In this document: positions 11,718 through 47,065 of the stretch, piece after piece
How positions within the stretch are numbered: the first letter of the stretch is position 1
Layout of the letters: each line of letters opens with the position of its first letter
NCBI GenBank assembly: GCA_001771505.1
Contig: MEUA01000034.1
Location: 1-48,100, forward strand
DNA: 48,100 bases
Reading direction: 5' to 3'
Source: a candidate division WOR-1 bacterium RIFOXYB2_FULL_36_35
GTDB lineage: Bacteria; Margulisbacteria; WOR-1; XYC2-FULL-46-14; XYC2-FULL-37-10
Notes under the pieces: model-generated
Database searches by the model: none
What the model was told of the DNA's origin: nothing
Seen by the model: only the letters and a program-made list of their open reading frames with translations
Made by a program: the position numbers and the translations under genes

Positions 11718-13892
11718 ATGACACTAGCCAACTATTTTGCGTTTGAAAGACCTAATCCGATTCCTGGTCGTTTATCTCAACAATTAAAGGCAACGAAGAT
11801 TTTTAAGCGATTGAATATTCCAAATATCCGTCTGTCGGTCATTGAAGATTTTGCCGGTCATATAGTTAAGCGGTTTATTCCTGGCAAGGTGGATTTAAAG
11901 GAGTTTTTAGCGGATGTTTCAGGCTATGATTTTGGCAAAACGGCAAAAAAGAATTTTGGAGAATTTACTTTTAAAGCGGTATTCCCTTCTATTTTAAAAG
12001 CGGCAAGAAAAGTAGGATATGAATTATATCCTGACAGAAAACTGGTGAATAGTAATCATTTTGAAGATAATTTAAGAGTTATCTTGAGCAAAATGTCGGG
12101 AGTTACAAGGCTTATGATAGTTGGTATTATTGTCATGGGAAGCAATAAAACAATTCTTAGAGCTTTAAATGGATCTAAGACGCAATCGGCAATGACCATT
12201 TCTCTTGCAGCAAGGGTTATTGCCGCATTGGTAGTGGATAATCCAATAATGGAGAAGAAGGTCGGGGTTCCAACAAGGCCAAAACATATTCAAAAAGATC
12301 AGCCGGAAAAGCCTGATTTTATGTCTCTGCCAAATGCTTACAACAGTGTCGATTCTCTCCCCCATGAAGCTTTAAGACATCCTGATGTTGTCTGCATAGG
12401 AAGCGGACCCAGCCTTGCCGCGGTTGTTGAAATATTAAGAAAACATCCGAATAAAAGTGTCTTGATAATAGAATCAGGCGGACATTTGTCGAATGAGGAA
12501 AAAGGCGGACTCACTCAAATGAGAAGAACCGTTTTAGGATATGAACAGGCTGGATTGACGACCGCATTGGGTTTTGATTTTTCAAACGGTATTTCGAATG
12601 CTCTATTTGGGGCATCAATCCCCATGCCAAATTTGGTAGGGGGAGGACCCGGTATTTTTAGCGGGACAATAGAAGATCCAGAACCTTATATAATACGGCA
12701 GATTTTTTCCGGAATGAATGTTGATCATTTAAATGAAAGAGCTGAAGAGATGCTTGGGGTTGGCCTGATTCCAAAAGAATTAATGCCTCAGGGAAGTATA
12801 GAGTTTTTAGAAACAGCCCTCTCAATGGGTTATAGCGGCCGTCCTCTTAATGGGATGAATATGGCAAGAAGACGACCTAATCAGACGCTTTGTGAAGGAA
12901 GGGCAGAATGTCCGTCTCAATGTCCGATCGACGCAAAAGAGAACCCGTTTTTAAGAGAGGCTTTGCAATATCCTAATGTTATACTTGTCGCAAATACGGA
13001 GGCGCAAAGAATAGAGTTCAAAGGTGATGAGCCTGTTTTAATTCCTGTTATTTCTAAGCTTTCTGGTAGAAAATTTAATATAAATGTAGAGGGTGAGGCT
13101 AGAATCCTTGTGGGGGCGGGGACTTTTGGTTCTGCAAAGCTTCTTGCAAGATCAGGCATTTCTCCAAAGGGGAGGATAACATTTCATCCAGCGTCAGAAG
13201 TTTCAGCCTTTAATCCTGACATGGGGCTTGTTGATCCAAGAGGGAGACTTCAGTCTTTCCTTGTCGAATTTCGAAAAAACATAGAAGGAGTTCAAGGGGC
13301 CAATGAAGGAGTAAGACCTTATTTTCCTCTCCTTCTTTTAGCATCCCCCGGAATAATAGGAGAGAGAGCTGTTGAATTATTAAATTTATATCCACGGACA
13401 GAGACTTACGGAATAATGATGAGTGAAGGAGATGATTCCGGCGGATCTTTTATCCGCATTCCTGGTTTTAATGAATTACAGATGATTTACAAAATGAGCC
13501 AGGAAGACAGGCTTCGCATGAAGATGCTGGCGTTTAAAACACTTGAGATAGCTGCCCACACGAAAAGGGGCCTTTTTTTAAGGGCGCTTACTTTTCCTCT
13601 TTTTCCAAGCAAGCTGGCGGGAGAATTTTCTCAATTAGGATTTTTTCACAGAGATGAAATTGAAAGGTTTAAGGGACATCTACTTGATAATAAAACATTC
13701 ATGTTGAATTTAGGATTTCATCCGTTGGGATCTTCGACTGGAAATATTGACAGGAGAACAGGGTTGCTTCTGGGGAGAAAAAGGACATATGTTATTGATG
13801 GCTCAAGCATTACAATAACAAAAGTAAACCCGACAAAGACAATTGTAGTTAATGCAATGGATAAAGGAGATAAAATTGCAAGAGATATGTAG
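11718..13892 (+). CDS. GMC-family FAD-dependent oxidoreductase
   Basis: This 724-residue flavoprotein resembles GMC (glucose-methanol-choline) oxidoreductases. The FAD-binding Rossmann motif is at about residues 222-255 (DVVCIGSGPSLAAVVEIL then SVLIIESGG; the usual GGG is replaced by PSL). It also has the bacterial GMC Cys cluster (CEGRAECPSQC followed by IDAKENP), LVGAGTFGSAKLL, and the C-terminal block GFHPLGSSTG with TKVNPTKTIVVNAMDKGDKIA that contributes the active-site His. About 200 N-terminal residues precede the FAD domain and match nothing I recognise. An AGGGGGAA ribosome-binding site precedes the ATG. The degenerate RelA/SpoT gene follows after 37 bases, so the two are probably co-transcribed. 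The substrate is unknown. Confidence 0.78.
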   Translation: MTLANYFAFERPNPIPGRLSQQLKATKIFKRLNIPNIRLSVIEDFAGHIVKRFIPGKVDLKEFLADVSGYDFGKTAKKNFGEFTFKAVFPSILKAARKVGYELYPDRKLVNSNHFEDNLRVILSKMSGVTRLMIVGIIVMGSNKTILRALNGSKTQSAMTISLAARVIAALVVDNPIMEKKVGVPTRPKHIQKDQPEKPDFMSLPNAYNSVDSLPHEALRHPDVVCIGSGPSLAAVVEILRKHPNKSVLIIESGGHLSNEEKGGLTQMRRTVLGYEQAGLTTALGFDFSNGISNALFGASIPMPNLVGGGPGIFSGTIEDPEPYIIRQIFSGMNVDHLNERAEEMLGVGLIPKELMPQGSIEFLETALSMGYSGRPLNGMNMARRRPNQTLCEGRAECPSQCPIDAKENPFLREALQYPNVILVANTEAQRIEFKGDEPVLIPVISKLSGRKFNINVEGEARILVGAGTFGSAKLLARSGISPKGRITFHPASEVSAFNPDMGLVDPRGRLQSFLVEFRKNIEGVQGANEGVRPYFPLLLLASPGIIGERAVELLNLYPRTETYGIMMSEGDDSGGSFIRIPGFNELQMIYKMSQEDRLRMKMLAFKTLEIAAHTKRGLFLRALTFPLFPSKLAGEFSQLGFFHRDEIERFKGHLLDNKTFMLNLGFHPLGSSTGNIDRRTGLLLGRKRTYVIDGSSITITKVNPTKTIVVNAMDKGDKIARDM

Positions 13893-13929: not shown

Positions 13930-16092
13930 GTGGATATTTCTCTGGTTCCGCGCGGATATTATCGAAGAGGGAATTTTTTCTCTAAAATAATTCACGATAC
14001 ACTACATAAGAAAACCCTCTCTTCTTCAGGCACGCCTTTTTATGTTACAAAACAAAATGTCTTAATTTCTCCATCCCAATATTTAGGGCATATTGATAGT
14101 TATGTAAGACGGGCGGAAAAGCTGGCTTTGAGCTTTGAACCAAAAGATCCTTTAGGAGCTTGCAGAATAAGGAGCGCTTTTTCTCTTGCAAACAAAACTC
14201 ATTATGGACAATTTAGATTGAGTGGTGAGCCTTATATTATTCATCCTCTTTCAGTTGCTGAATTTTTAAGAAAACGTGGTGCAGACGAAGAGACTGTTGT
14301 TATAGCTTTGCAACATGATATTTTGGAAGATGGAATTATTGACGGGAAAAAAGCAACTAAAGAGTTTTTGGCAGGAGAGATGGGAGAGGCTATTTCTTTT
14401 GGCGTTGATGGTGTAACTCAGTTGGGAAAACCTTCTCTGGTAGATAAGCATTCCAAACATGTTGAATACGCGATTAAAAATATCAGGGTAATACTTGTTA
14501 AACTTGTTGACAACCTTCATAACATGAAAACACTCCGTTATAAGAAGCCTGAAAGACGAAGGACTATATCAATGGAAGCTTTAAATGTATATGCTCCTCT
14601 TGCAAACCGTCTTGGAATATGGGATGTTAAACGTGAACTTGAAGATCTGGCCTTTAGATGGCTTGATCCGAAAATGTTTAGGAAGATCAGATCGAAAAGA
14701 AAAACTCTAATATCTTCCAGCGTAGAAAGAATTTCAGAGATTAAAAAAACGTTGCTTCCCGCCTTGCAAATGATAGATCCCGATGTGAGACTGGTTTTAG
14801 AAACAAGATGTATATATGAAATTTACCAGAGGATGCAAAAAAGGAATATTTTAGATGTGGAGCATTTATCCCCCGCTGATATCTGGAGGGTTAATGTTGT
14901 TGTTTCTGATAGAGAAAAATGTTTTACCGCCTTGGATTATGTCCATAGGATGTACCACCCGGATAGAAATAATTTTCCCGACCACATAAACTCTCCGGAA
15001 CCAAATGGAGCGCAATTTTTGCATACATATGTGATGGTTCCAGGCTTTGGTATGTTACTTGTTCAAATAAGAGATCCACAGATGCAGGCATATTATCATT
15101 CCGGAATTATAGCAAATCCTTCGCTTATGAAGGATTCTTCATGGCTGGTCGGATTGCTTAAAGACTTAAGAAGCCAGATGCTTACTGTTGATGATGAAGT
15201 TTACAATGTGATGGAGCAGCATATTTTGCCAATTACTGTTTATACCGATAAAGGAGGAGAATTTCAGACTCTTTTCGGCTCAACGGTGTTGGATGCGATC
15301 AGAGTATTTGGTGAAAAATCTTTTTTACATGCCCTTGTTGATGAAGATGAGAAGAGTCTTTCTCGTCAGCTTGCCGATGGGTGTACCCTATCTATTAGGA
15401 CAGCGGAAAATATTACGGCGAAGCTTACATGGCTTAATAGTCTTAATACTTTAGACGCGATCCATACCCTGCAAGATTATTTAAAGAGCTTGAGTGATGA
15501 AGAAATTTTATCAAACGCTAAAAAAGCTTTGGATAAAGGCAGCCAAAAATTTTATTTGCCGGCGGAGGTCTTGATTAAAACAAGGCTTTTTAAAAAATAT
15601 ATTTCTTCTTTGGGGTTTGGCTCTGTAGAGGAGTTTTTAAGAAAAGTCGGCATTGGGGAGATACGCGTTCAACATGTTGTTCCTCAGATGAATAATGAAA
15701 TTTATAGAGAAGAATTGTTAAAAGCTGAAAAAAAAGAATATGCGCCATATTATTATTTTATAAGAACTCTGGACAGATCTCAGATTTTAAGCCGTCTTTC
15801 CTGGTCTCTTTGCACGCGATTGGGTTTTAATATGGTTGAATTTTCTCCTGTTTATACAGGTGAGGTTTTTAGAGGGAGAAGAGAGGTTATTGTTGTTTTT
15901 GGAGTTGAGCTTTATAGGGGAGGGATTGATGATAATATGGTCTCTGAAATTCAACGGTTGCAAGTGCAGACGATAGCAGAAAGGGTTCTTCTTTATGACC
16001 CTAAAATAATAAAATATCCCAATATTGGGTATGGAGCGTTATCGAAAAATGAAGTTGATGCGTTGATTTTATTGAAAATTAAAACAAAGTAG
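13930..16092 (+). CDS. RelA/SpoT-homologue with intact HD hydrolase and degenerate synthetase domain
   Basis: This 720-residue long RSH-like protein starts with GTG. The N-terminal HD hydrolase has its metal and catalytic residues (His105 in GEPYIIHP; His129-Asp130 in HDILED; Asp194 in KLVDNLHNMKT), and the linker NVYAPLANRLGI is very RSH-like. The following synthetase domain (about 310-395) keeps the fold (PDHINSPEPNGAQFLHT, VQIRD) but loses hallmarks. The catalytic Glu of ExQIRT is Leu377, the guanine-stacking Tyr of NGYQSLHT is Ala361, and the PK lysine is Glu357. A TGS-like domain (about 433-505) and an ACT-like C-terminal segment (about 610-685) follow. I infer a (p)ppGpp hydrolase or nucleotide-phosphohydrolase without synthesis. 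It follows the GMC gene and ends 9 bases from the convergent polA. Confidence 0.8.
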   Translation: MDISLVPRGYYRRGNFFSKIIHDTLHKKTLSSSGTPFYVTKQNVLISPSQYLGHIDSYVRRAEKLALSFEPKDPLGACRIRSAFSLANKTHYGQFRLSGEPYIIHPLSVAEFLRKRGADEETVVIALQHDILEDGIIDGKKATKEFLAGEMGEAISFGVDGVTQLGKPSLVDKHSKHVEYAIKNIRVILVKLVDNLHNMKTLRYKKPERRRTISMEALNVYAPLANRLGIWDVKRELEDLAFRWLDPKMFRKIRSKRKTLISSSVERISEIKKTLLPALQMIDPDVRLVLETRCIYEIYQRMQKRNILDVEHLSPADIWRVNVVVSDREKCFTALDYVHRMYHPDRNNFPDHINSPEPNGAQFLHTYVMVPGFGMLLVQIRDPQMQAYYHSGIIANPSLMKDSSWLVGLLKDLRSQMLTVDDEVYNVMEQHILPITVYTDKGGEFQTLFGSTVLDAIRVFGEKSFLHALVDEDEKSLSRQLADGCTLSIRTAENITAKLTWLNSLNTLDAIHTLQDYLKSLSDEEILSNAKKALDKGSQKFYLPAEVLIKTRLFKKYISSLGFGSVEEFLRKVGIGEIRVQHVVPQMNNEIYREELLKAEKKEYAPYYYFIRTLDRSQILSRLSWSLCTRLGFNMVEFSPVYTGEVFRGRREVIVVFGVELYRGGIDDNMVSEIQRLQVQTIAERVLLYDPKIIKYPNIGYGALSKNEVDALILLKIKTK

Positions 16093-18860: not shown

Positions 18861-19186
18861 GGCTTCTTAAAGAAAAAAATTATTGATAAAATAAATAGTA
18901 TTTTTGCTAAACATCCTCAAGCAGAGGAATCTATTCTTATATGGTGTCACGCGCAAAAGGGACTTTTAAGAAAGGTTCTGATATAGACCTTGTACTTAAA
19001 GGGAAAAACTTAGACATTTCTTTGGTGAATAAGATAAATCTTGAAATTGATGATTTTTTGCTGCCATATTCTTTCGATATATCCATTTTAGATCAAATAA
19101 ACAATTCAGAACTGATTGATCATATCAAAAGAAACGGGATTATTTTTTATTTTTCTAAAAGGGCTTCAGACTCAAAAGCGGATTAA
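18861..19186 (+). pseudogene. Frameshifted MNT nucleotidyltransferase
   Basis: An open frame from 18941 (ATG) encodes SRAKGTFKKGSDIDLVLKG plus a complete-looking C-terminal half (ISILDQINNSELIDHIKRNG), but the first Gly of the MNT motif is missing. The expected N-terminal half (KKIIDKINSIFAKHPQAEESIL) lies just upstream in another frame, from about 18870 to 18934, with no ATG. The frames meet around 18935-18945, where one lost base would restore ILIYGSRAKG. I therefore read this as a single MNT gene broken by a frameshift and lacking a start. It overlaps the convergent tsf gene by 4 bases, and no HEPN partner is present. Confidence 0.65.
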
Positions 19187-20856: not shown

Positions 20857-23800
20857 ATGCCGTGTGATCTTAAAAAAATTGTTGTTTCTTCTCCCACCTC
20901 AGTTTATGCAGGGGAGATTCCTGCTTCCACAAAACTTCTTACTGTTTTTGGACGGGTAATCCCGTTTGCGATGGATAGCACCTTAAAAACAGCTTCGTTT
21001 TGCGCATCTTTGTTTAAGCTAAACAATTTTCAAAGAGAACTATTAAGGACAAAAGATATGCGTGTGGTTGATTGGGAATCTTTTGTAAGGCAGGGAGCAA
21101 AAGAAGATCAGTTTGCAAAAGAGCTTGCGGTAAACGGGCTTGAAGCTATACGAGGGATAAAAATTGTGGGGATGTATGGGATGGGGAGGCTTATGTCATT
21201 AAGATATGTAAGAGGTGTTGCAAATGCCTTTATTGAAGTTACAACTAGAGTTGTTTCTGATGTGGGGAGGGTTGTCAGATTTTTAAGCATAGAAGCAGAT
21301 GGCAGAAAAGATGTGTCGATTGAATTGAGGGAGAGGGAGAATACAGAATTTGAACATGGGACACAGGTTGAGGTAAGGAGTAGTCTCCTTACTAACCTTA
21401 ATAATAAAATATTGGAGGGGATTCATAATACATTTAGATTTGTAATGGATGTTGATGTTAAGGCAAATGCCGCGCGGGTTAATAATCCTCAAGAGTGGTT
21501 GAGCTTGAAACATGGAGATATAAACAAGGAATCAAAGGGAAAGTTAGAGATACAAGTATCTGGCGATAGTTTTAAGGTAAAAGACAGCGGCCATGGAATG
21601 GGGGCTGACAGATTGGTAAAAGGATATTTGGGGTTGGGGAGTTCGGAGGGGAGCTTGGAGAGAGAATATAGGGATGACATACAAGAGGCAGATATTTATT
21701 ACTCAAGAGATTGTTCTAAAGGAGAGCAAAGAGTTATTAGTAATGGGAGAGTCAGTTTTTTGATGTGTGGGGTGGAGATAATAGGAATAGATATCTCAGG
21801 GGTTAATATTGAAAATAATTTGGGGATTGAGCTTGGAATAGGGATCAGGCCTTCTCAATCAAAAGATAAAATTAAACTGGGAGGAGAAGAGGTAAAAAGG
21901 ATAAGTGAGTTGATTAAGCAGGTTTTGACGATTGCGGGGGAACGCAAGTGGTCAATCTTAAACAGTATAGCAGCGGCGCTGGAATCAAAAGAGCTTTTGT
22001 TTGAAATGGGGGAGAAAGATGCCCTCCTTAAGTTCATGTGCGTGGAGGGGAAAAAGGTCAGTGAGATGGAGGCTTGTTTCGAAACCCTCCTATTGCCTAA
22101 CGAAAGAGGATTTGTTGATCTTAAAGTTTCAAGAAGAAAGGTTTACGTAAGAAGGGAACTTTTGGCTGAGTTTAAGATAAGCGATGCGGGGGTAGAGACC
22201 TATGACTCCACATTGTATGAGAGTAGAAGGGGATATATTGTACATTGGGCGGAATTTAACAGTGATGATGTGTGGGTGGAGGTAGGAAAGAATGTGATAA
22301 TAAACAGGAAGTATCAGGGCAATAAATTGATGTTGAATCTGAGAGCCGGATTTTATGTCGGATATGGAGATAGGGAGATGCCGAAATTCAGATTGCTGTG
22401 GCCGTGGGAAGTTGATAATAGCGCCGATAATAGCATGGGGGAAGCAGGGGGAGTTGAAAATACTCATGCAAAAAGAGAGTTAAGCAATTATACGGATTTT
22501 TTGAGTAGACTTGGTGAACAAGATAGAAAGGGGGCTGCTGTATATCTGAGGATTTTTGGGGATAGTAAGGAGGCAAGGAGGTTAATTAAAGGTGTAATAA
22601 AGCGAAGAGATAAATTGGGAGCTGGACAAATTCCATTGGAAAAAGTTTTATTTAGGGCTAAGGAGCTTAGTAAGGCTAACGTTGATTTTTATTGTATTGC
22701 AGGGAGAGAATTTGTCAGATTTTCCAAACCTTTGGATCATATGTGTGAATTATATGAACTTGTGAATGGAAGACTTATTAAAACGGGAATTTTTTCTGAT
22801 TCCTTAGAACTTTATCATTTTGAGGATGAATTATTCATTGTTGAAAAGAAATTTGATGATAATGGAGGTGAAAGCTTTATTATCTGGCTAAAAGGCAGAG
22901 ATGGGAAGTTAAGAAGAGTTTTTTCCGGCAATAATAAATTTATTAATCTCTATTCGCATGAAAACAGAATTGTTGTTATTTTTCAGGATAATAGCAGTCG
23001 GGATACTCCGTTTGTTGTCTGTGAAGGGTCAAAAGATAGGCTGATATTTGAATATAAGTTTGAAGTTCCGAGGTGTCGGGCTTTTAATTTTTCAGGTGAT
23101 TCCGTGATAACAGCTGTCGGAAATGTAATTGTAGATAAAACAATTGATGGTGATTTAAAAGAGATTACATTTGGAGAGAAATCTTTGTTATTTGTTTGTA
23201 AATATGATGAGGGTTACTTGATTCAGACCTTTTCTTCTTGTGAAGATAAGAAGATATTTCTTTTTCGCCAGGGGGAAGCAACTCTTGAGATAGATTCTCC
23301 CGGATTCATGCAAAGAGCAAGAGTTGTCGGGGATAAAATATTCTTGAATGGAATCACAGATAGCCATGTTAATGCTTTTTTTGAGATGGGATTAGATTAT
23401 AAATTAAAAGAGAGTAGCGCTAAAGAGTTTTTTCTTTTAGATGGTGAAGCCGGATGTTTTTCTTTTTCTAACATGAATAAAATTGATAGGGAGACTTCTT
23501 TTTATAAAATAGGGACGCCTCTTCCCGTTTTGATGGTATTTTTTTTAGAAAAAGAAGGCGGTTCTCGCTTTTCAGATTTTGCTTTCTTAGAAGAAAGAAG
23601 AGATATTTATAGGTGTGCAGCCATTCCTGCTCATATCCCTACCAAAAAAGCATGGTTTTCATCCAATGATGAGAGAGAAACATATGAGAATCGCCGTCAT
23701 GAGATGCTCTGCCGTATTGTGGCAGGGGATTATTCAAAAGGAGTTCAAAATCTTGAACTGTTTGGATATTTTCCTGCAAAAGCTGTTGAAAGTTTGGGAG

Positions 23801-26076
23801 ATGAATTGGTTCTTAAAATTGAAGGGAGGCTTTCAACTAGAATTGGTGAAGCATTTAGGTTTCAAGAGGCATATTTGTCATTTATTGAAAAGTTATGGTA
23901 TGCAAGTTATGGAGAAATAGAAGGAGATCTATTCAGGCGTGTTGTTTCAAGATGGGATATCTTGGTAAATGTCTTAGCGGGGGATATTGAAGAGCTTGAA
24001 AGGATCCTGGAGTATTTTGATGAGAAGGGTATCTATATGTATCTTTATAATGGAAAGGAGCTTCCGGATGATCCTGAAGTAAAAGGATTTGTTCATCTTC
24101 TAACCCGCGAAGATTTAAAGGTAAGAGAGGCCAATCTCCCTGCAACGGTAAGGGAAATTCCAAAAAGAGGGGGATGGACTGGGATTGTAGAGAGGCATGA
24201 TTTGGCATTTTACTATTGGGCGGGGCTTTATGATCCCGGCTGGTCGCAAGAAAGAGAAAAGCACGCTAGATTACTTGCAGATTGGACAAGGGGTTATTAT
24301 AAAGGAGATAGGATCGATCATAAAGTTTTTAAGTCTTACGTAAGGAGCGAAGTAAAAGGACAGGATTTAAAAAGGGATATTTGCGGAAGAGAGTTTATCC
24401 AAAATGGGATAGACGCGGGGGCCAAGAAGATGGATATTTTGACATCTACTCAAAGAATAGGGAGAGATTTATATCATTTTGCAACCTATCGGGATGATGG
24501 GCGAGGATTATCAGATTCAGGGGTTAAAGAGTTGTTATTGAATTTAGGCGTTTCAGACAAAAGGGGCGGGGGATTAGAAGGTAAAAAGAATATAGGTAAG
24601 AACGGGATAGGCTTTGAAAGCGCGTTAAATGATAATGATGTGGTTGTAGTAAAATCGTCATCAGGAGATGGAAATTATGTGGAAGTAGAGCTTCGTGGGA
24701 ATAACCTTGATGCTCAAGTTTCAAAATATATTAATGGTTTAACTGATGCGGGAGTGAGCGGCTTTGAGGTCTCTGTAGGGAAGAAGATAGGGTCTGTATT
24801 TGATGAAGAAGAAAATAAGATAAAGATAGCATTTAGAGAGATGGCGCTGGAGTTTAGAGTAAGGGATATGGCGGGATTGGTCGATCCTGCTGTTTTAAAT
24901 ATTTCTTATAAAGGGGTTGGGATAGCAGAAAGAATTTTAAACAAGGAGAGTCTTGCATTAAAAGGGAGGGGGGTATATTCATTGTTAAAAGTGGAAAAGG
25001 AGCATGAGGATAGAGTTGTTCAAAACGGGTTGATAGTAAATCATTCTAAGGAGAGATATTTAAAATATTTTCCTGAGTTTTTAAAAAGATATGTGGAAGA
25101 TTGCGCTTTTGAGATTGGAGAAAATGAGGAATTGACAAGAGGGAGAGATGATGTGATGGAAGATGAGAGGGTGGTTGCAAATATCTTTATACAACTTGCT
25201 ATGCAAAAAGCCATAAAAGAGTATCTTCAGACTGGAGAAGAGTTTGGAAATTTACCGAAAGATTATCTCTATTCGCAGCATGTAGAGCTTGGGAATGGTA
25301 ATTTGGAGGGGAATATTCCCATGGAGGTAAAAACCCTGGCAGAAATTATAAATGGAGGGGATATCAATCTTGTTGATTTGACGGGATATCAGGGGAGAGA
25401 AGAGGAATTGACAATGCTTATGACTCTGATTGGAATAAAAGATAGCGATGGGAAGATAATTTCTTTACAAGATGTGCGAGATTCTGTTGCGAGAGGCGCG
25501 TTGTTGGAAAGCTCGTTAATATCATCTTCATTTAGAATGATAATGACAAGCGCAACTAGAAGAAGAAGAGAGTTTCTAGAAGCGTATCAAGCAGAAAATG
25601 AAAGAGAAGATGTTGCCTATCTGCCTACGCATCTGGAAAAGTTTCAAGCGATGATGCTTGAGATATATCAGGCTATGGGATTACATGATCCGAAAGTCGT
25701 ATTTTATTCAAATCCTAAAGAGATAAGGATTGCAACCTTTGGACCGAATGTCTTTAAGTTTAGGCGGGAGGCGATTGAGGATGATGCGAAAGAGTTGAAT
25801 AAAATATTGGCATTGAGGCAGGAAGGGCTCCTTGCTAAACTTGCAATGAGAGGAGAAGATTTGGTCATTAGAGACCTTGCCTATAGGGCGGACACAGCAA
25901 TTAAGATGTTATCTTCTTTAATAGAAGGCACGGGAATTCATGAAGAAGTACATGAGCATTTTGTCAGACTGGGAATTCCTGAGGGGTGGAGTCATGGGAA
26001 GAGATTTAAAGATAGGGCGATCGGCTTTGTCGATGTGATGTTAAAAAATGGTTATAATCCTCTTATTCCCCAGTAG
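20857..26076 (+). CDS. Giant protein with two GHKL-type ATPase modules and a C-terminal HExxH zincin-like motif
   Basis: About 1739 residues; no known family recognised. Module 2 is a standard GHKL order: N-box (EFIQNGIDAGA, Glu1179, Asn1183), G1 (RDDGRGL, about 1213-1217) and G2 (GKNGIGFESAL, 1247-1252). Module 1 has an N-box (KELAVNGLEA, Glu89, Asn93), a G2-like MYGMGRL (about 106-111), a GTQVEV strand (about 168) and only then a G1 box (VKDSGHGM, Asp243), an order unlike Hsp90, MutL or histidine kinases. The middle (about 620-880) is beta-rich and propeller-like. The C terminus has HEEVH (His1695, His1699) with SHGKRF 14 residues on (His1713), as in SprT-type metallopeptidases. There is no signal peptide or clear membrane segment. 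The start at 20857 has TAGGA upstream; an ATG at 20764 lacks one and overlaps the rpsB promoter. I infer an ATP-driven conformational sensor joined to a protease. Confidence 0.72.
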   Translation: MPCDLKKIVVSSPTSVYAGEIPASTKLLTVFGRVIPFAMDSTLKTASFCASLFKLNNFQRELLRTKDMRVVDWESFVRQGAKEDQFAKELAVNGLEAIRGIKIVGMYGMGRLMSLRYVRGVANAFIEVTTRVVSDVGRVVRFLSIEADGRKDVSIELRERENTEFEHGTQVEVRSSLLTNLNNKILEGIHNTFRFVMDVDVKANAARVNNPQEWLSLKHGDINKESKGKLEIQVSGDSFKVKDSGHGMGADRLVKGYLGLGSSEGSLEREYRDDIQEADIYYSRDCSKGEQRVISNGRVSFLMCGVEIIGIDISGVNIENNLGIELGIGIRPSQSKDKIKLGGEEVKRISELIKQVLTIAGERKWSILNSIAAALESKELLFEMGEKDALLKFMCVEGKKVSEMEACFETLLLPNERGFVDLKVSRRKVYVRRELLAEFKISDAGVETYDSTLYESRRGYIVHWAEFNSDDVWVEVGKNVIINRKYQGNKLMLNLRAGFYVGYGDREMPKFRLLWPWEVDNSADNSMGEAGGVENTHAKRELSNYTDFLSRLGEQDRKGAAVYLRIFGDSKEARRLIKGVIKRRDKLGAGQIPLEKVLFRAKELSKANVDFYCIAGREFVRFSKPLDHMCELYELVNGRLIKTGIFSDSLELYHFEDELFIVEKKFDDNGGESFIIWLKGRDGKLRRVFSGNNKFINLYSHENRIVVIFQDNSSRDTPFVVCEGSKDRLIFEYKFEVPRCRAFNFSGDSVITAVGNVIVDKTIDGDLKEITFGEKSLLFVCKYDEGYLIQTFSSCEDKKIFLFRQGEATLEIDSPGFMQRARVVGDKIFLNGITDSHVNAFFEMGLDYKLKESSAKEFFLLDGEAGCFSFSNMNKIDRETSFYKIGTPLPVLMVFFLEKEGGSRFSDFAFLEERRDIYRCAAIPAHIPTKKAWFSSNDERETYENRRHEMLCRIVAGDYSKGVQNLELFGYFPAKAVESLGDELVLKIEGRLSTRIGEAFRFQEAYLSFIEKLWYASYGEIEGDLFRRVVSRWDILVNVLAGDIEELERILEYFDEKGIYMYLYNGKELPDDPEVKGFVHLLTREDLKVREANLPATVREIPKRGGWTGIVERHDLAFYYWAGLYDPGWSQEREKHARLLADWTRGYYKGDRIDHKVFKSYVRSEVKGQDLKRDICGREFIQNGIDAGAKKMDILTSTQRIGRDLYHFATYRDDGRGLSDSGVKELLLNLGVSDKRGGGLEGKKNIGKNGIGFESALNDNDVVVVKSSSGDGNYVEVELRGNNLDAQVSKYINGLTDAGVSGFEVSVGKKIGSVFDEEENKIKIAFREMALEFRVRDMAGLVDPAVLNISYKGVGIAERILNKESLALKGRGVYSLLKVEKEHEDRVVQNGLIVNHSKERYLKYFPEFLKRYVEDCAFEIGENEELTRGRDDVMEDERVVANIFIQLAMQKAIKEYLQTGEEFGNLPKDYLYSQHVELGNGNLEGNIPMEVKTLAEIINGGDINLVDLTGYQGREEELTMLMTLIGIKDSDGKIISLQDVRDSVARGALLESSLISSSFRMIMTSATRRRREFLEAYQAENEREDVAYLPTHLEKFQAMMLEIYQAMGLHDPKVVFYSNPKEIRIATFGPNVFKFRREAIEDDAKELNKILALRQEGLLAKLAMRGEDLVIRDLAYRADTAIKMLSSLIEGTGIHEEVHEHFVRLGIPEGWSHGKRFKDRAIGFVDVMLKNGYNPLIPQ

Positions 26077-35572: not shown

Positions 35573-37654
35573 TTGCTTAAATTATCTAAATATTGTTATA
35601 CGTTAAATGAAGGAGAATTTGCGCTTTATTATTCGGATTTAGTTGCTCATTTTTTAAGTAAAAAGAGTGTAACTGTTCAGTATTGTATTGACCTTGCCAA
35701 GATATGTGATAGTAACGGAACTCGTATATTATCCCGAAATGCTAACATAGGCAAGTTTTTATCAGAAGCTTTTCCTTTAAAAGATGTTAAAAGAGTTGCG
35801 GACTTAAAAGATAGTGAAGGGAGGACTATTTTTAGAAACGATGAAATTGAATATAAATGCAGACTTGATGATATAAGAAATCTTTTGAAGACCGGCATCT
35901 CCTTAAAAACAGTTGAAAGACTTGTGAGTGAAGTAGTATTTGATAGTGGGGCAACTGTTTTTCAAACACCGAGAGATATTATTAGATTTTTAAAATCTGG
36001 CGGAGATTTAGAATATGCACAATCTGCGATTGGGATAAGAGATCATGAAGGAAGAGAAATTTTTAATGAATTTACATTAGGCTTGTGTAAAGAGAATGGC
36101 TTTACGATTCTGCAGCTGCGACAGATTGTTGATATTTCAGATACAGAAAGTCATACTATTTTTTCTGATGGAGAAGATGTTTATGCTGTATTGCGGAGGG
36201 ATCAATTAAAACTCGATTTGGTTTCCTTAAGAAATACAGAGGAGGCTACGGTTTTTAGAGATGGAGCTGATATAAACAGGTTTGTGGCGGCAGGAGGGAC
36301 ATATGAAAGGGGAAGCGAGTATGTATCTGTACGAGTTAATGGGGCAACAGCTTTTAACGGTCATGATATAGCGGTTTTGCAATCTAATGGAGTTCCCGCG
36401 GATTACACGCAAAAAATGGTTGAAGCTGGGCTTAACGCGGATACTATTATTTATTATTATAAATTGGGACTAAAGTCCATAGATATTGATTTTAAGAATG
36501 ACGGCAGACCAAAAGCTCTATTTTTATATCCTACAGACGATCCTACTTTTTTGGGTGATTGTGTTTTTAGCGAAGAGAGAGCTATAAATGTAATTTCTAT
36601 TATTAAAGATCATTACGATATTAAGCTTAGGGCTATATCTACAGTTGAAGAGATGTGTAAATGTTTGGATGAAGATAGTGATCTTAAATTACTTGTGTTG
36701 GGGGGGCATGGATCAAGAGAGACTCTTACTTTTGGATGTAGCCGTCCTAAATATGGGATACACTATTCTGATGATTCTAGAGAGTTAAAAGTTAGTAAAT
36801 TTAATTTGAAAGAACATTTAAGAAAATTACCTGAGGATCTCGTCATATTTCTTGACTCATGTTTAAATGGTGAGGGTGGTGCGGAAGGAGAAAACATGGC
36901 GAATTATGTGGCCCAAAGTGCTCCGGGGAGGAAAGTTATCTCTTCAATGGTTGCTTTTAATGGTGGGGATATATGTTTTCATAGTTTTATACCTTTTGAT
37001 ATAGATATATTTAAGCATTTGAAAAGGGGGACATATATTCCGGAAAATGGATGGAGAAAAATAAAATTTTCACCAACAGATACCCTAATCTGTTCGTCTA
37101 TGAACCCCGATTTCGTAATCGGGGTGAATAATCGGGGTTTAAGTTTTCCTTTTTTGCATTTGCCTAATAATCCTACAAGAGAAAGATTTTATGAAATGAT
37201 AGAGAGGGCAAGAAGTTCATTAATTATGAATGAAATAGTAAGTGGCTTTGATTTGGAACTTATCGAGAGTAGAGACTATTGTGATGATTGTAATACTGGA
37301 TATTTTGGGTTAGAGTATGTTTTCTATAAAAGATTTATGCAACCGTGGGCAGCAAATGGTAAAGCTTCTCTGTTTTTGTATTATAATGATTCTTTGACAG
37401 GAAAAGAGCTAATTCCTCCCTTCCCTTTTCTTTTCTCTAAAGGGTTTAGGCCTGTTGATTATCCTTTAAATGGAGACGTAGTCGCTTATTTTTTGAGAAA
37501 ATTTGATAGACCGGAATATTTTGGAATATATGATGATGGCCGAGTGATTTCTAAGTTAGGGTTTGGTCATATTGTTAGGCATGATCTCTCTTTAGTCCCT
37601 TATTCTGAGTATACTCCTACAGATTCTGTGGCATTTTTGAGATATTTTGGTTAG
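35573..37654 (+). CDS. Caspase-like protease with N-terminal tandem repeats
   Basis: The roughly 690-residue main frame has no good start of its own (TTG at 35573; an ATA at 35558 follows GGGAGG). The N-terminal 300 residues hold about six repeats of 30-35 residues with the pattern x-D-x-E/A-x-x-x-I/V-F-x-x-x-x-D-I (DSEGRTIFRNDEI, SGATVFQTPRDI, TESHTIFSDGEDV, TEEATVFRDGADI). From about 313 a caspase fold is suggested: a first strand KALFLYP, LLVLGGHGS (His379) and VIFLDSCLNG (Cys430), the His-Cys dyad 51 residues apart, then APGRKVISSM. A palindrome at 37104-37140 is read in frame after the protease core. No membrane segment is seen. I infer a cysteine protease with a sensing array; the substrate is unknown. 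Confidence 0.68.
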   Translation: MLKLSKYCYTLNEGEFALYYSDLVAHFLSKKSVTVQYCIDLAKICDSNGTRILSRNANIGKFLSEAFPLKDVKRVADLKDSEGRTIFRNDEIEYKCRLDDIRNLLKTGISLKTVERLVSEVVFDSGATVFQTPRDIIRFLKSGGDLEYAQSAIGIRDHEGREIFNEFTLGLCKENGFTILQLRQIVDISDTESHTIFSDGEDVYAVLRRDQLKLDLVSLRNTEEATVFRDGADINRFVAAGGTYERGSEYVSVRVNGATAFNGHDIAVLQSNGVPADYTQKMVEAGLNADTIIYYYKLGLKSIDIDFKNDGRPKALFLYPTDDPTFLGDCVFSEERAINVISIIKDHYDIKLRAISTVEEMCKCLDEDSDLKLLVLGGHGSRETLTFGCSRPKYGIHYSDDSRELKVSKFNLKEHLRKLPEDLVIFLDSCLNGEGGAEGENMANYVAQSAPGRKVISSMVAFNGGDICFHSFIPFDIDIFKHLKRGTYIPENGWRKIKFSPTDTLICSSMNPDFVIGVNNRGLSFPFLHLPNNPTRERFYEMIERARSSLIMNEIVSGFDLELIESRDYCDDCNTGYFGLEYVFYKRFMQPWAANGKASLFLYYNDSLTGKELIPPFPFLFSKGFRPVDYPLNGDVVAYFLRKFDRPEYFGIYDDGRVISKLGFGHIVRHDLSLVPYSEYTPTDSVAFLRYFG
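37104..37140. repeat. Dispersed palindrome plus extra half-site inside the caspase-like gene
   Basis: ACCCCGATT-TCGT-AATCGGGGT followed by GAATAATCGGGGTT. Together they encode the in-frame stretch NPDFVIGVNNRGL. This is a second case, with 9446-9467, of the palindrome sitting in coding sequence without breaking the frame. Confidence 0.78.
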
Positions 37655-40562: not shown

Positions 40563-42389
40563 TTGAGGAGTAGTTTTACTTATAAAAAAGGTGGTTCATC
40601 GTCAACTTATAGGACTGTTGCAGCAGATTGGCTTAAACCTGCTGGCCCGATAAGTATGTTTCAGCCTTTTGCATATGATATGGCATTTGCTGTCAGGCGT
40701 ATGGCAGGAGACTCTCAAGTTTTAACGATTTCTCCAGATGGTTTTTGCGTTTCTGATAAGTTGTTAGCATTGAATACTTCTTATCCTAAAGGTTTATGTG
40801 ACAAGCTTATTTTTGGTGGCATTAGATCTATTAAGGTAAATCGTCCATTGAGAACGATAGAGGTTACGAACGGTTTAGTTGCGATTTTTGAAGTCGTAAT
40901 GAATCCAAACGGGAAAACTTTAGAAGGAGTTATTAAAGAGCTTACGGATAAAGGGATTATTGCTCCTGAGCTTGTTGCTCAGGATGATAAAAAAACGGAG
41001 ACTGAGCCCCCTTTATTAATTAATGCGGTTAAACCTTCTATTCCTGTTATCAGTGTAGGAGATAGGCCCCTTAAAGAGCAATTAGATGAAGTTTTTCAGT
41101 ATTGGAGGGAGATTCTTTCTCCATCCTTGACAAATCTTATAGAAGAAAACCATTATAACGCAGAACAGGCTGAAAAAGCTTTGGATATTGCAAGAAATGT
41201 AAGAATCGATTTTTTCTCTTGGGATGGGCTTGGCGCAAAAGATGCTTCAAGATTTTCAAGGCTTTTGTATCATTTATATATTGAAGCAACAGGAGGGCAT
41301 ATAGCAGGGATTCCTCGGCGTCAACCGGGGACCACTCTTCAAACAGAAATTTATTATAGACTGGGGTTTAAGCCTGTTACTAAAGATGACAAAGATAAAG
41401 ATAAACGAGTTACGTATGAATGGGATTCATATACGAGAGATAAAGAATTTCTTTCATTTTTGAAGAAGAGATTTTTTGATGAATCTACAGGTAAATTATC
41501 TCACCATAAATATAAAGAAAAAAAACGAATATATAATGGAAGGTTTGGATTAGGTAGACTTACTTTTGATGAAATCTTGTTACTTGAAGCCATTTTTAGG
41601 GGAGAAGTTCCTCTTATTGATGGGAAAGAGAACCTGTTTAAAATGAAAACAAATGAGGCTGTTTCCTTGGTGGAAGGGAAAGAAACAGAAAGAGACCCTT
41701 ATTCAAAAATAATAATAGAGATGAGAGAAAAATTTCCTTTCTTTGGAGTATACCTTCCTATGGATGAGGTAAGATGGTGTAAAGATGTTATTTCCCGAAA
41801 AATTGATTTATCATTTAAAGATAGGATTCGTGTTGAGAGAGTTTTAAAAAGGGTTATTTTAAAAGAAATTGGACTGTTGGAATTTAATGCAAGAGAGATA
41901 AAGTGGATAATAAATTATATACTTTGCCATATTCTACTTCATCAAACAGACTATGTGTTTCATATGGCAAAGGAGAGAAAGAGCCTTACTTTTAATGGAA
42001 AAGAGATACAACGTGCGATAGCGGAGAGACTTAAAGAGATCAATCAAACAGGAAAACTTTTTCCTGAAGAGGCGTTGATGATACATCATGATGGTAAGAT
42101 TGTAGTTTCTGCTGAGCATCGTCAAGCCCTTGAAGAACCTGTTTTACAGATGATTGTAGACTACATGAAGACTAATGTTCTTTCTGCGCAAAATATTATA
42201 ACCGCATATGAAAAGGGGTATGAATCTCTTCATAAAAAAGATTCAGGAGATGTCAAATTGGTTAGAACAGAAGATGGGACACCTATTGTATGGACGGAAT
42301 TTTTATCCATACTTGAGCTTTATGAAAAAGGGGAATACCCTCCTGTTTTGATGGAAGATCCTCTTTGGGAGAAATTTCAGAAGACATAA
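40563..42389 (+). CDS. 608-residue protein of unknown function
   Basis: I do not recognise a family. The start is a TTG after GAGGGTGA. The N-terminal 130 residues look beta-rich (VLTISPDGFCVSDKLLALN, RTIEVTNGLVAIFEVV). A linker follows, and then a long mainly helical, Lys/Glu-rich region from about 165 to the end. Features worth noting are IAGIPRRQPGTTLQTEIYYR (about 240-260) and ILCHILLHQTDYVFHMAKE (about 455-475), but no catalytic motif stands out. There is no signal peptide or membrane helix. It lies alone between metF and phoB in a 100-base gap context and belongs with the other large orphan proteins of this window. Confidence 0.7.
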   Translation: MRSSFTYKKGGSSSTYRTVAADWLKPAGPISMFQPFAYDMAFAVRRMAGDSQVLTISPDGFCVSDKLLALNTSYPKGLCDKLIFGGIRSIKVNRPLRTIEVTNGLVAIFEVVMNPNGKTLEGVIKELTDKGIIAPELVAQDDKKTETEPPLLINAVKPSIPVISVGDRPLKEQLDEVFQYWREILSPSLTNLIEENHYNAEQAEKALDIARNVRIDFFSWDGLGAKDASRFSRLLYHLYIEATGGHIAGIPRRQPGTTLQTEIYYRLGFKPVTKDDKDKDKRVTYEWDSYTRDKEFLSFLKKRFFDESTGKLSHHKYKEKKRIYNGRFGLGRLTFDEILLLEAIFRGEVPLIDGKENLFKMKTNEAVSLVEGKETERDPYSKIIIEMREKFPFFGVYLPMDEVRWCKDVISRKIDLSFKDRIRVERVLKRVILKEIGLLEFNAREIKWIINYILCHILLHQTDYVFHMAKERKSLTFNGKEIQRAIAERLKEINQTGKLFPEEALMIHHDGKIVVSAEHRQALEEPVLQMIVDYMKTNVLSAQNIITAYEKGYESLHKKDSGDVKLVRTEDGTPIVWTEFLSILELYEKGEYPPVLMEDPLWEKFQKT

Positions 42390-45823: not shown

Positions 45824-47065
45824 ATGAAAAAAGTTTCTTTATTAATTTTTAGTTTAATCATTTTATTGGGATTTACATCGGCTTCTATTGCGGCAACTGT
45901 TGATGAAATAAAAATTTATTTGGAACAGCTCAACCAGAAGCTTATGCAGGCAAAAGCTGACAAGGATTTTGACAGGATAAAAAAAGTGCAAACTCTGATT
46001 TCTAAAACCAGTAAAGAATTAGAAGAAGCTAAAGTGGAGGATGATTTTGCAAGCGTTGATGAAAGCGTTCAAGATGTAAAAGAAGAGATGAACCTTGCCT
46101 TTACAGATTTAAAGAGTCAGATTGACAAAGTTAAAAAAGATAACAGTGATGTAAAAGTAAGCTCCGAAATTCATTTTAATTGGGTTAATACAGGGACTGG
46201 CTCTACCGGATTTGATGTTACCAGGGCATACATCAATTTCAAAAATAAACTTGATTGGAATGCTTCTGCTCGTATAACGCTTGACGTTGCAAGATTAAGT
46301 ACAAGCGTTGATACCCAAAGCCGAAATCAGCAGCTTTCTGACTATCTAAAATATGCGTATGTCGAAATACCACTTGGAATCTCTTCCTCGATTTTTCCCA
46401 ACTTAACAGGAAAAGTTGGCCTTCAGCATACTGTGTGGATTGATTGGGCGGACAAAATGCTTGGAATGCGTTTTATAGCAAAGAGCCTTGTTGATAATGA
46501 AGGGATTATGTCTTCTGCCGACTTTGGATTAGGGGCGTTGGGTAAAATATCAGCTTCAGGGCTACCAGAAATTGAGTATCATACGACACTTATTAACGGT
46601 TCTGGCTATAAATCCGCCGAAACCAACACAAGCAAAGACTTTGGAATTAGGCTTAATTCAACTGTTTATGAAAACGAAAAAACAGGAAATATTATTGCTG
46701 GGCTATTTGGCAATATAAAAGGAATTGATACTAATGATACAGATGGAACAAGCAGGCAGGTTGGGACAATGGTTGGATTAAAAAATAATATGGGAACTAT
46801 TTATGGTGAATACATTTATGGAACAGGAATTTCGGGCTATAGCTTTGGCGGCAAATATGAGCTTTATCCAAGGTATACTCTGTTTGCGCGTATGGATAAT
46901 TATGATCCCAACAGAAGTGTTTCTAATGATCAAACAGACCGTGCTTTTTACGGCATAACATATAAAGCAGGGGATAATATTGATTTTGCCATAGATGCGC
47001 AAAGCCAAACAAGAGCTAACGCAACAACAACTGCTCTATATTTTCATACAAAAGTCGAAATGTAG
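45824..47065 (+). CDS. Outer-membrane porin, probably phosphate-responsive
   Basis: The 413-residue protein has a clear signal peptide (about 1-23, ending SIAA), then a coiled-coil segment (about 25-110; IYLEQLNQKLMQAKADKDF), then a beta-rich barrel with alternating pattern (SSEIHFNWVNTG, TVKVGLQHT-type strands). This resembles OprP-like phosphate-selective porins. The C terminus ends in VEM rather than the usual aromatic residue. A Pho-box-like repeat lies upstream and pstS follows, which together support a role in phosphate uptake across the outer membrane. AGGAGG precedes the ATG. Confidence 0.75.
   Translation: MKKVSLLIFSLIILLGFTSASIAATVDEIKIYLEQLNQKLMQAKADKDFDRIKKVQTLISKTSKELEEAKVEDDFASVDESVQDVKEEMNLAFTDLKSQIDKVKKDNSDVKVSSEIHFNWVNTGTGSTGFDVTRAYINFKNKLDWNASARITLDVARLSTSVDTQSRNQQLSDYLKYAYVEIPLGISSSIFPNLTGKVGLQHTVWIDWADKMLGMRFIAKSLVDNEGIMSSADFGLGALGKISASGLPEIEYHTTLINGSGYKSAETNTSKDFGIRLNSTVYENEKTGNIIAGLFGNIKGIDTNDTDGTSRQVGTMVGLKNNMGTIYGEYIYGTGISGYSFGGKYELYPRYTLFARMDNYDPNRSVSNDQTDRAFYGITYKAGDNIDFAIDAQSQTRANATTTALYFHTKVEM

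What the first reader, a model, noticed from the sequence alone, without database searches (positions are those of the whole stretch)
20857..26076. Giant protein combining two GHKL ATPase modules with a C-terminal zincin-like motif
Seen: a second module with N-box, DDGRG and GKNGIGF in the normal order, a first module with N-box and G-boxes, and HEEVH followed 14 residues later by SHGKRF, at the very C terminus. Known: paired ATP lids of Hsp90/MutL/MORC proteins act as ATP-driven clamps, and HExxH...HGxxF is the SprT-type metalloprotease pattern. Inference: an ATP-gated clamp carrying its own protease, perhaps for quality control or a conflict system. I know of no described family with this architecture.
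Basis: partly seen in the sequence, partly recalled or inferred. Interest (0 to 1): 0.9.

Follow-up and report, generated by a model that had tools for sequence, protein, structure and literature searches.

The report
Double Hsp90-like ATPase with built-in protease
An uncultured Margulisbacterium encodes a 1,739-residue protein that joins two Hsp90-like ATP-binding modules, one with its parts in a scrambled order, to a metal-protease-like site at its end; it belongs to a small family not described in any database or paper searched here, and looks like an ATP-controlled protease or chaperone.

Summary
The gene (20857-26076, 1739 aa) is one of seven homologues in 3 of 74 Margulisbacteria genomes (about 20% identity to the most distant). 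In all seven, the only invariant columns of the C-terminal domain are H, E and H of HExxH and one later His, so a zincin-type site is very likely. Its class is open: Pfam does not see SprT, and HGxxF is in only 3 of 7. Both ATPase modules are real and closest to Hsp90, not MutL or MORC.

Module 2 is canonical. Module 1 keeps every ATP-site motif, but the strand-D-box-lid segment has moved from between N-box and G2 box to the equivalent of Hsp90's N/middle junction: order N-G2-D instead of N-D-G2. Each block matches Hsp90 separately (0 of 200 shuffles). Put back in canonical order, two of four tested module-1 sequences pass Pfam GHKL cut-offs that none reaches in native order. The arrangement is in all seven and is not a circular permutation. 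In the distant homologues module 2's D-box is degraded while module 1's is intact.

Likely role: ATP-driven two-module clamp controlling a C-terminal metalloprotease; inferred. AlphaFold models failed (three-sequence alignments).

The parts
20857..26076 (+). Gene for the 1739-aa double-GHKL/zincin protein
   Evidence: Open frame; RBS-like AGGA upstream; homologues have an in-frame stop just upstream of the equivalent Met; 53% ortholog in L045/G002
21109..21147 (+). Module 1 N-box (AKELAVNGLEAIR region); Glu and Asn invariant in 7 of 7
   Evidence: matches HtpG N-box, 0 of 200 shuffles
21154..21510 (+). Module 1 G2 block: GxxGxG box, strands, GT strand and start of a middle-domain-like strand; directly follows the N-box
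   Evidence: matches HtpG 133-210 and module 2; TRAP1 125-235
21535..21678 (+). Module 1 relocated segment: beta-hairpin, D-box DxGxGM, lid-like helix
   Evidence: matches HtpG 80-121 and module 2 D-box region; HtpG 7u4c 44-99; D, G, G, M invariant in 7 of 7
22021..23610 (+). Variable middle region, partly beta-rich, no family assigned
   Evidence: no Pfam hit; poorly conserved columns; a repeat model failed outside one homologue
24361..24429 (+). Module 2 N-box (GQDLK..ICGREFIQNGIDAGA)
   Evidence: Pfam HATPase_c_3; R, E, Q, N, D invariant
24481..24558 (+). Module 2 D-box (RDDGRGL) and following helix; degraded in the two distant homologues
24577..24633 (+). Module 2 G2 box (NIGKNGIGF)
25126..25152 (+). 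LTRGRD motif, possibly equivalent to the catalytic Arg loop of the Hsp90 middle domain
   Evidence: T and R invariant in 7 of 7; the equivalence is an inference, hhalign to the HtpG middle domain not significant
25621..26073 (+). C-terminal zincin-like domain
   Evidence: only H, E, H, H invariant among 7 sequences at 10-59% identity
25939..25953 (+). HEEVH, predicted zinc ligands and catalytic Glu
25993..25995 (+). His1713, predicted third zinc ligand
   Evidence: invariant in 7 of 7

Best explanation
This is a member of a small, previously unnamed family of giant proteins (about 1600-2100 aa) of Margulisbacteria that carry two Hsp90-like GHKL modules and a C-terminal zincin-type metalloprotease domain. 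Module 2 is canonical. In module 1 the strand-D-box-lid segment was moved out of the N-terminal ATPase domain to the junction with the middle-domain-like part. It probably folds back to complete the same ATP site, because every ATP-contact motif in it is invariant. Proposed mechanism: the two modules act as a built-in heterodimer (an intramolecular clamp); ATP binding closes them on a client held by the variable middle region, and closure exposes or aligns the C-terminal HExxH...H site, so that cleavage depends on ATP state. Shown: the domains, the rearrangement, motif conservation. Inferred: that both or either module hydrolyses ATP, that they pair, that the zincin cuts protein, and that the two are coupled.
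For: Module 2 is GHKL by Pfam; the whole-family profile finds Hsp90 N domains in the PDB at 7e-9. The module 1 profile finds HtpG and TRAP1 at 2e-8 to 9e-8; in the two printed alignments it comes as two pieces in swapped order. Three module 1 blocks each align to HtpG and to module 2 at the expected places, 0 of 200 column shuffles each. Of six block orders the canonical one scores best in 13 of 14 comparisons and lifts two of four tested sequences above Pfam cut-offs (HATPase_c 33.9 bits, cut-off 26.4; HATPase_c_3 26.2 and 25.4, cut-off 25), none of which pass in native order. 10 of 15 invariant columns of module 1 are ATP-site motif residues. HExxH and a later His are the only invariant residues of the C-terminal domain. 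Seven homologues, from three genomes in two classes, share the plan.
Against: No reliable structure: pLDDT 40 and 47 from three-sequence alignments. Foldseek on the weak model of the C-terminal half gives mostly GHKL proteins at the top (MutL, MORC, Topo II) but none significant (best E=0.08). No homologue of the zincin domain in Pfam or PDB by sequence. Neighbours are unrelated housekeeping or unassigned genes, so context gives no functional hint. Module 2's D-box is degraded in both G053 proteins, so a two-ATP clamp cannot be general to the family.
Confidence: 0.5

Rival explanations
1. The relocated D-box/lid of module 1 does not complete module 1 but is swapped into another subunit or into module 2, so that the protein works as an obligate interlocked oligomer.
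For: The segment sits after the middle-domain-like strand, far in sequence from its usual place. In the G053 proteins module 2's own D-box is degraded (DPAGM, ENSGR) while module 1's is intact, as expected if one D-box could serve another site.
Against: In the five closer proteins module 2 has its own intact D-box. All module 1 motifs are co-conserved, which is simplest if they form one site.
Confidence: 0.2
2. A defence or inter-microbial conflict protein: the middle region senses an invader or target, and GHKL switching unleashes a suicidal or target-specific metalloprotease.
For: Patchy presence (3 of 74 genomes), several divergent copies per genome (2, 3 and 2), strongly diverging middle regions, no conserved neighbourhood. 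GHKL proteins such as the BbrUII family occur in restriction systems, and this family gives weak hits to them.
Against: No PADLOC hit, no phage or plasmid homologue of the C-terminal half, no full-length relative in viral contigs. The window copy lies among housekeeping genes (rpsB, tsf, polA, rpoN) and not in a defence island.
Confidence: 0.2
3. An Hsp90-like chaperone or scaffold in which the C-terminal HExxH domain is a zinc-binding structural or dimerisation element without protease activity.
For: No similarity to a characterised peptidase family beyond the motif. The class to which the organism belongs has no HtpG (0 of 31 genomes), leaving room for a substitute.
Against: The catalytic Glu of HExxH is invariant with the three His; a structural zinc site needs no Glu. 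Most genomes of the class lack both HtpG and this family, and G053 has both, so it is not simply an HtpG replacement.
Confidence: 0.15
4. An artefact: chance motifs, or an assembly chimera.
For: A single draft-genome contig; short motifs can arise by chance.
Against: The same order and motifs recur in seven proteins of three assemblies at down to about 20% identity; shuffles never reach the scores.
Confidence: 0.02

Closest known systems
Hsp90 family (HtpG, TRAP1, GRP94) N-terminal ATPase domain
   Same: Best sequence relatives of both modules; N-box, D-box, GxxGxG and GT motifs kept; module 1's match to TRAP1 continues to the first strand of the middle domain
   Different: Two modules in one chain; module 1 has D-box/lid relocated; no Pfam HSP90 (PF00183) match anywhere in this genome; zincin added
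Sacsin-type GHKL (NCBIfam sacsin N-terminal ATP-binding-like domain)
   Same: Giant protein with more than one Hsp90-like module (sacsin: own knowledge); weak below-cut-off hits for module 2, E=3.9e-6
   Different: No hit over cut-off; rearranged module and zincin are not part of sacsin as I know it
MutL / MORC / BbrUII-type GHKL proteins
   Same: Same superfamily, ATP-driven clamp logic; BbrUII model hits the own-genome paralogue below cut-off
   Different: Not the best sequence relatives; nuclease and CW parts not found
SprT/SPRTN metalloproteases
   Same: HExxH followed by a His; SHGxxF in the window protein and two homologues
   Different: No Pfam SprT match; variable spacing, HG and F not conserved family-wide

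Membership tests
GHKL (Bergerat) ATPase superfamily, module 2 | N-box, D-box, G2 box in canonical order, recognised by a GHKL profile | tested here: met
   Pfam PF13589 35.3 bits over cut-off 25; HtpG profile aligned through the whole domain, E=1.7e-11
GHKL (Bergerat) ATPase superfamily, module 1 | All ATP-site motifs present | tested here: met
   E, N, D, G, G, M and GxxGxG invariant in 7 of 7; each block matches HtpG
GHKL (Bergerat) ATPase superfamily, module 1 | Canonical linear order N-box, D-box, G2 | tested here: not met
   Order is N-box, G2, D-box; no native-order sequence passes Pfam, two of four do after reordering
GHKL (Bergerat) ATPase superfamily, module 1 | Bergerat three-dimensional fold | tested here: inconclusive
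   AlphaFold2 model pLDDT 39.6
Hsp90 family | Hsp90 middle and C-terminal domains (PF00183) | tested here: not met
   PF00183 search: no match in the own genome
SprT-like metalloprotease | Match to the SprT family profile | tested here: not met
   Pfam scan of seven C-terminal segments at E up to 10: none
SprT-like metalloprotease | HExxH with downstream HGxxF | tested here: inconclusive
   In 3 of 7; the others have THGED, THGTN, THQRD, VHDET
Zincin metallopeptidase (class level) | HExxH plus third ligand conserved among homologues | tested here: met
   The only invariant columns among seven sequences
Zincin metallopeptidase (class level) | Zinc binding and peptide hydrolysis | not testable with these tools
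   Needs biochemistry
Known anti-phage defence systems | Match to a PADLOC model | tested here: not met
   No hit for three family members at E up to 1

The most novel reading that the evidence does not exclude
Module 1 is a working Bergerat ATPase with a non-circularly permuted topology (N-box, G2, D-box), a chain order not found described for GHKL proteins in the searches made here, and it drives a C-terminal metalloprotease: an Hsp90-derived, ATP-gated protease in one polypeptide.
Probability: 0.4. Interest if true: 0.85.

Novelty: new variant of a known kind. Interest (0 to 1): 0.7.

Why it matters
Known ATP-driven proteases mostly use AAA+ motors; an Hsp90-type clamp coupled in one chain to a metalloprotease would be a different way to join chaperoning and proteolysis. 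The rearranged module 1 shows that the Bergerat ATP site can apparently tolerate moving its D-box and lid to another place in the chain, and explains why domain scans miss it. That raises the question of how many other GHKL proteins are hidden from profile searches by rearrangement, which can be tested by searching with block-reordered profiles.

Tried and rejected
Foldseek of the C-terminal-half model: top rows mostly GHKL but none significant. SprT assignment by Pfam and PDB profile: nothing beyond the HExxH itself. Beta-propeller in the middle region: a repeat model seeded in one homologue found nothing in the others, so only 'variable, partly beta-rich' is claimed. A degenerate zincin after module 1: no significant alignment between halves there. 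True circular permutation of module 1: rejected, because the invariant N-box lies before G2 and the helix after the GT strand lacks conserved Glu and Asn. Full-family profile pattern scan failed for lack of conserved stretches. Empty-site comparison: rpsB and rpoN are not close neighbours in relatives, so no clean test. HtpG replacement: not supported by co-occurrence. Homologues of the C-terminal half in plasmids or phages, and of the whole protein in viral contigs: none. Open-literature searches found no description.

Full report
What is there. The window is contig C34 of a 1.95-Mb genome. The nearest named relative found is a WOR-1 (Saganbacteria) genome, MEUB01000017, so the organism is placed in the Margulisbacteria; the placement rests on that relative and on my knowledge of WOR-1 taxonomy. 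The gene at 20857-26076 (+) encodes 1739 aa. The longer ORF from 20764 is unlikely to be the real start: AGGA stands before 20857 and two homologues have an in-frame stop immediately upstream of the equivalent Met. Residue numbers printed for the 1770-aa form (for example) are 31 higher than those for the 1739-aa form. The gene is divergent from rpsB/tsf and 65 bases upstream of rpoN. Flanks of the other family members that I scanned are housekeeping or unassigned genes, so context gives no function.

The family. One ortholog (53%) and further paralogues were found: G000 has 2 copies, G002 of the same family has 3, and G053 of another class has 2; no other of the 74 Margulisbacteria genomes held has one. 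One G002 copy is split into two overlapping frames. The C-terminal half has no plasmid or phage relative, and a pattern scan of viral contigs with the whole protein found none. The genome contigs pattern scan reached only the WOR-1 loci; that method sees close relatives only, so distant members elsewhere cannot be excluded.

The protease-like end. All seven proteins carry HExxH near the C terminus, where 0.001-0.01 are expected by composition in the last 100 residues. In a seven-sequence alignment at 10-59% identity to the window protein, the only invariant columns are H, E and H of HExxH and one later His. That pattern is what a zincin active site leaves. The spacing to the third His varies from 8 to 22 residues, and the SprT-like HGxxF is in three of seven. 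No Pfam family reached its cut-off; a weak hit to a putative metallopeptidase family (DUF6782, E=0.15) in one homologue is noted only. A profile search of the PDB brought weak, non-significant aminopeptidase hits that share little more than HExxH.

The ATPase modules. Pfam recognises only module 2. The family profile's best PDB relatives are Hsp90 N domains. NCBIfam gives below-cut-off hits to sacsin-type, Hsp90 and BbrUII-type models. Module 1 contains an N-box, a GxxGxG box and a DxGxGM box, but the D-box comes last. Several tests show that this is a real rearrangement of an Hsp90-like domain. First, profile alignment of module 1 with module 2 and with HtpG returns the blocks as separate alignments in swapped order. 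Second, each block taken alone matches HtpG and module 2 at the expected place, with 0 of 200 column shuffles reaching its score. Third, the module 1 profile finds HtpG and TRAP1 in the PDB in two pieces in swapped order, and the TRAP1 alignment runs into the first strand of the middle domain (FPLYLNGRRMN); the D-box segment therefore sits at the equivalent of the N/middle junction. Fourth, of the six possible block orders the canonical one scores best in 13 of 14 tests against HtpG and module 2, and reordering lifts two of four tested sequences over Pfam GHKL cut-offs that no native-order sequence reaches. The order A-C-B is not a cyclic rotation of A-B-C, so 'circular permutation' is the wrong name. 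Ten of fifteen invariant module 1 columns are ATP-site motif residues.

Asymmetry. In the two G053 proteins module 2's D-box is degraded (DPAGM, ENSGR) while module 1's is intact. The unusual module is thus the one whose motifs are kept throughout, which suggests that it is the essential ATP site.

Mechanism. From established knowledge, paired GHKL domains close on ATP binding and drive Hsp90-, MutL- and topoisomerase-type clamps. With two unequal modules in one chain, the simplest reading is an intramolecular clamp around a client bound by the variable middle region, whose ATP state controls access to the C-terminal zincin. The domain content and the rearrangement are shown; pairing, hydrolysis, proteolysis and coupling are inferred. 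Structure prediction could not help: both models were of very low confidence because only three sequences could be used.

Relation to Hsp90 biology. None of the 31 genomes of the organism's class that were searched has a PF00183 HtpG, whereas many in other classes do, including G053, which has both HtpG and two of these giants. The family is therefore not a simple replacement.

Limits. Seven sequences; one phylum searched in depth; the literature search covers open-access papers only; no reliable 3-D model; no biochemistry.

Noticed in passing
G000-G030 (31 genomes of the organism's class): No canonical HtpG/Hsp90 (PF00183) in any of 31 genomes, while 33 of 43 genomes of other classes in the phylum have it.
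   Followed up: partly
L021:4330-9917 (-): Third family copy in G002 is split into two overlapping frames in the middle region; the second frame has no ATG for its first 193 codons, so it may be a frameshifted gene or an assembly error.
   Followed up: partly
window 35573-37654, 40563-42389, 45824-47065: Three long ORFs (693, 608, 413 aa) without any Pfam, NCBIfam or PHROGs match.
   Followed up: no
window 13930-16092: RelA/SpoT-like protein well below the family cut-off, with an N-terminal extension.
   Followed up: no
window 11718-13892: 724-aa protein with only a partial GMC oxidoreductase match.
   Followed up: no
window about 18870-19186 (+): Between polA and tsf, letters read by eye as a small nucleotidyltransferase-like reading (GSDIDLVLKG); no ORF of 100 aa or more there.
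   Followed up: no
G053 family members L023 and L024: Module 2 D-box degraded (DPAGM, ENSGR) although the rest of the module is kept.
   Followed up: yes
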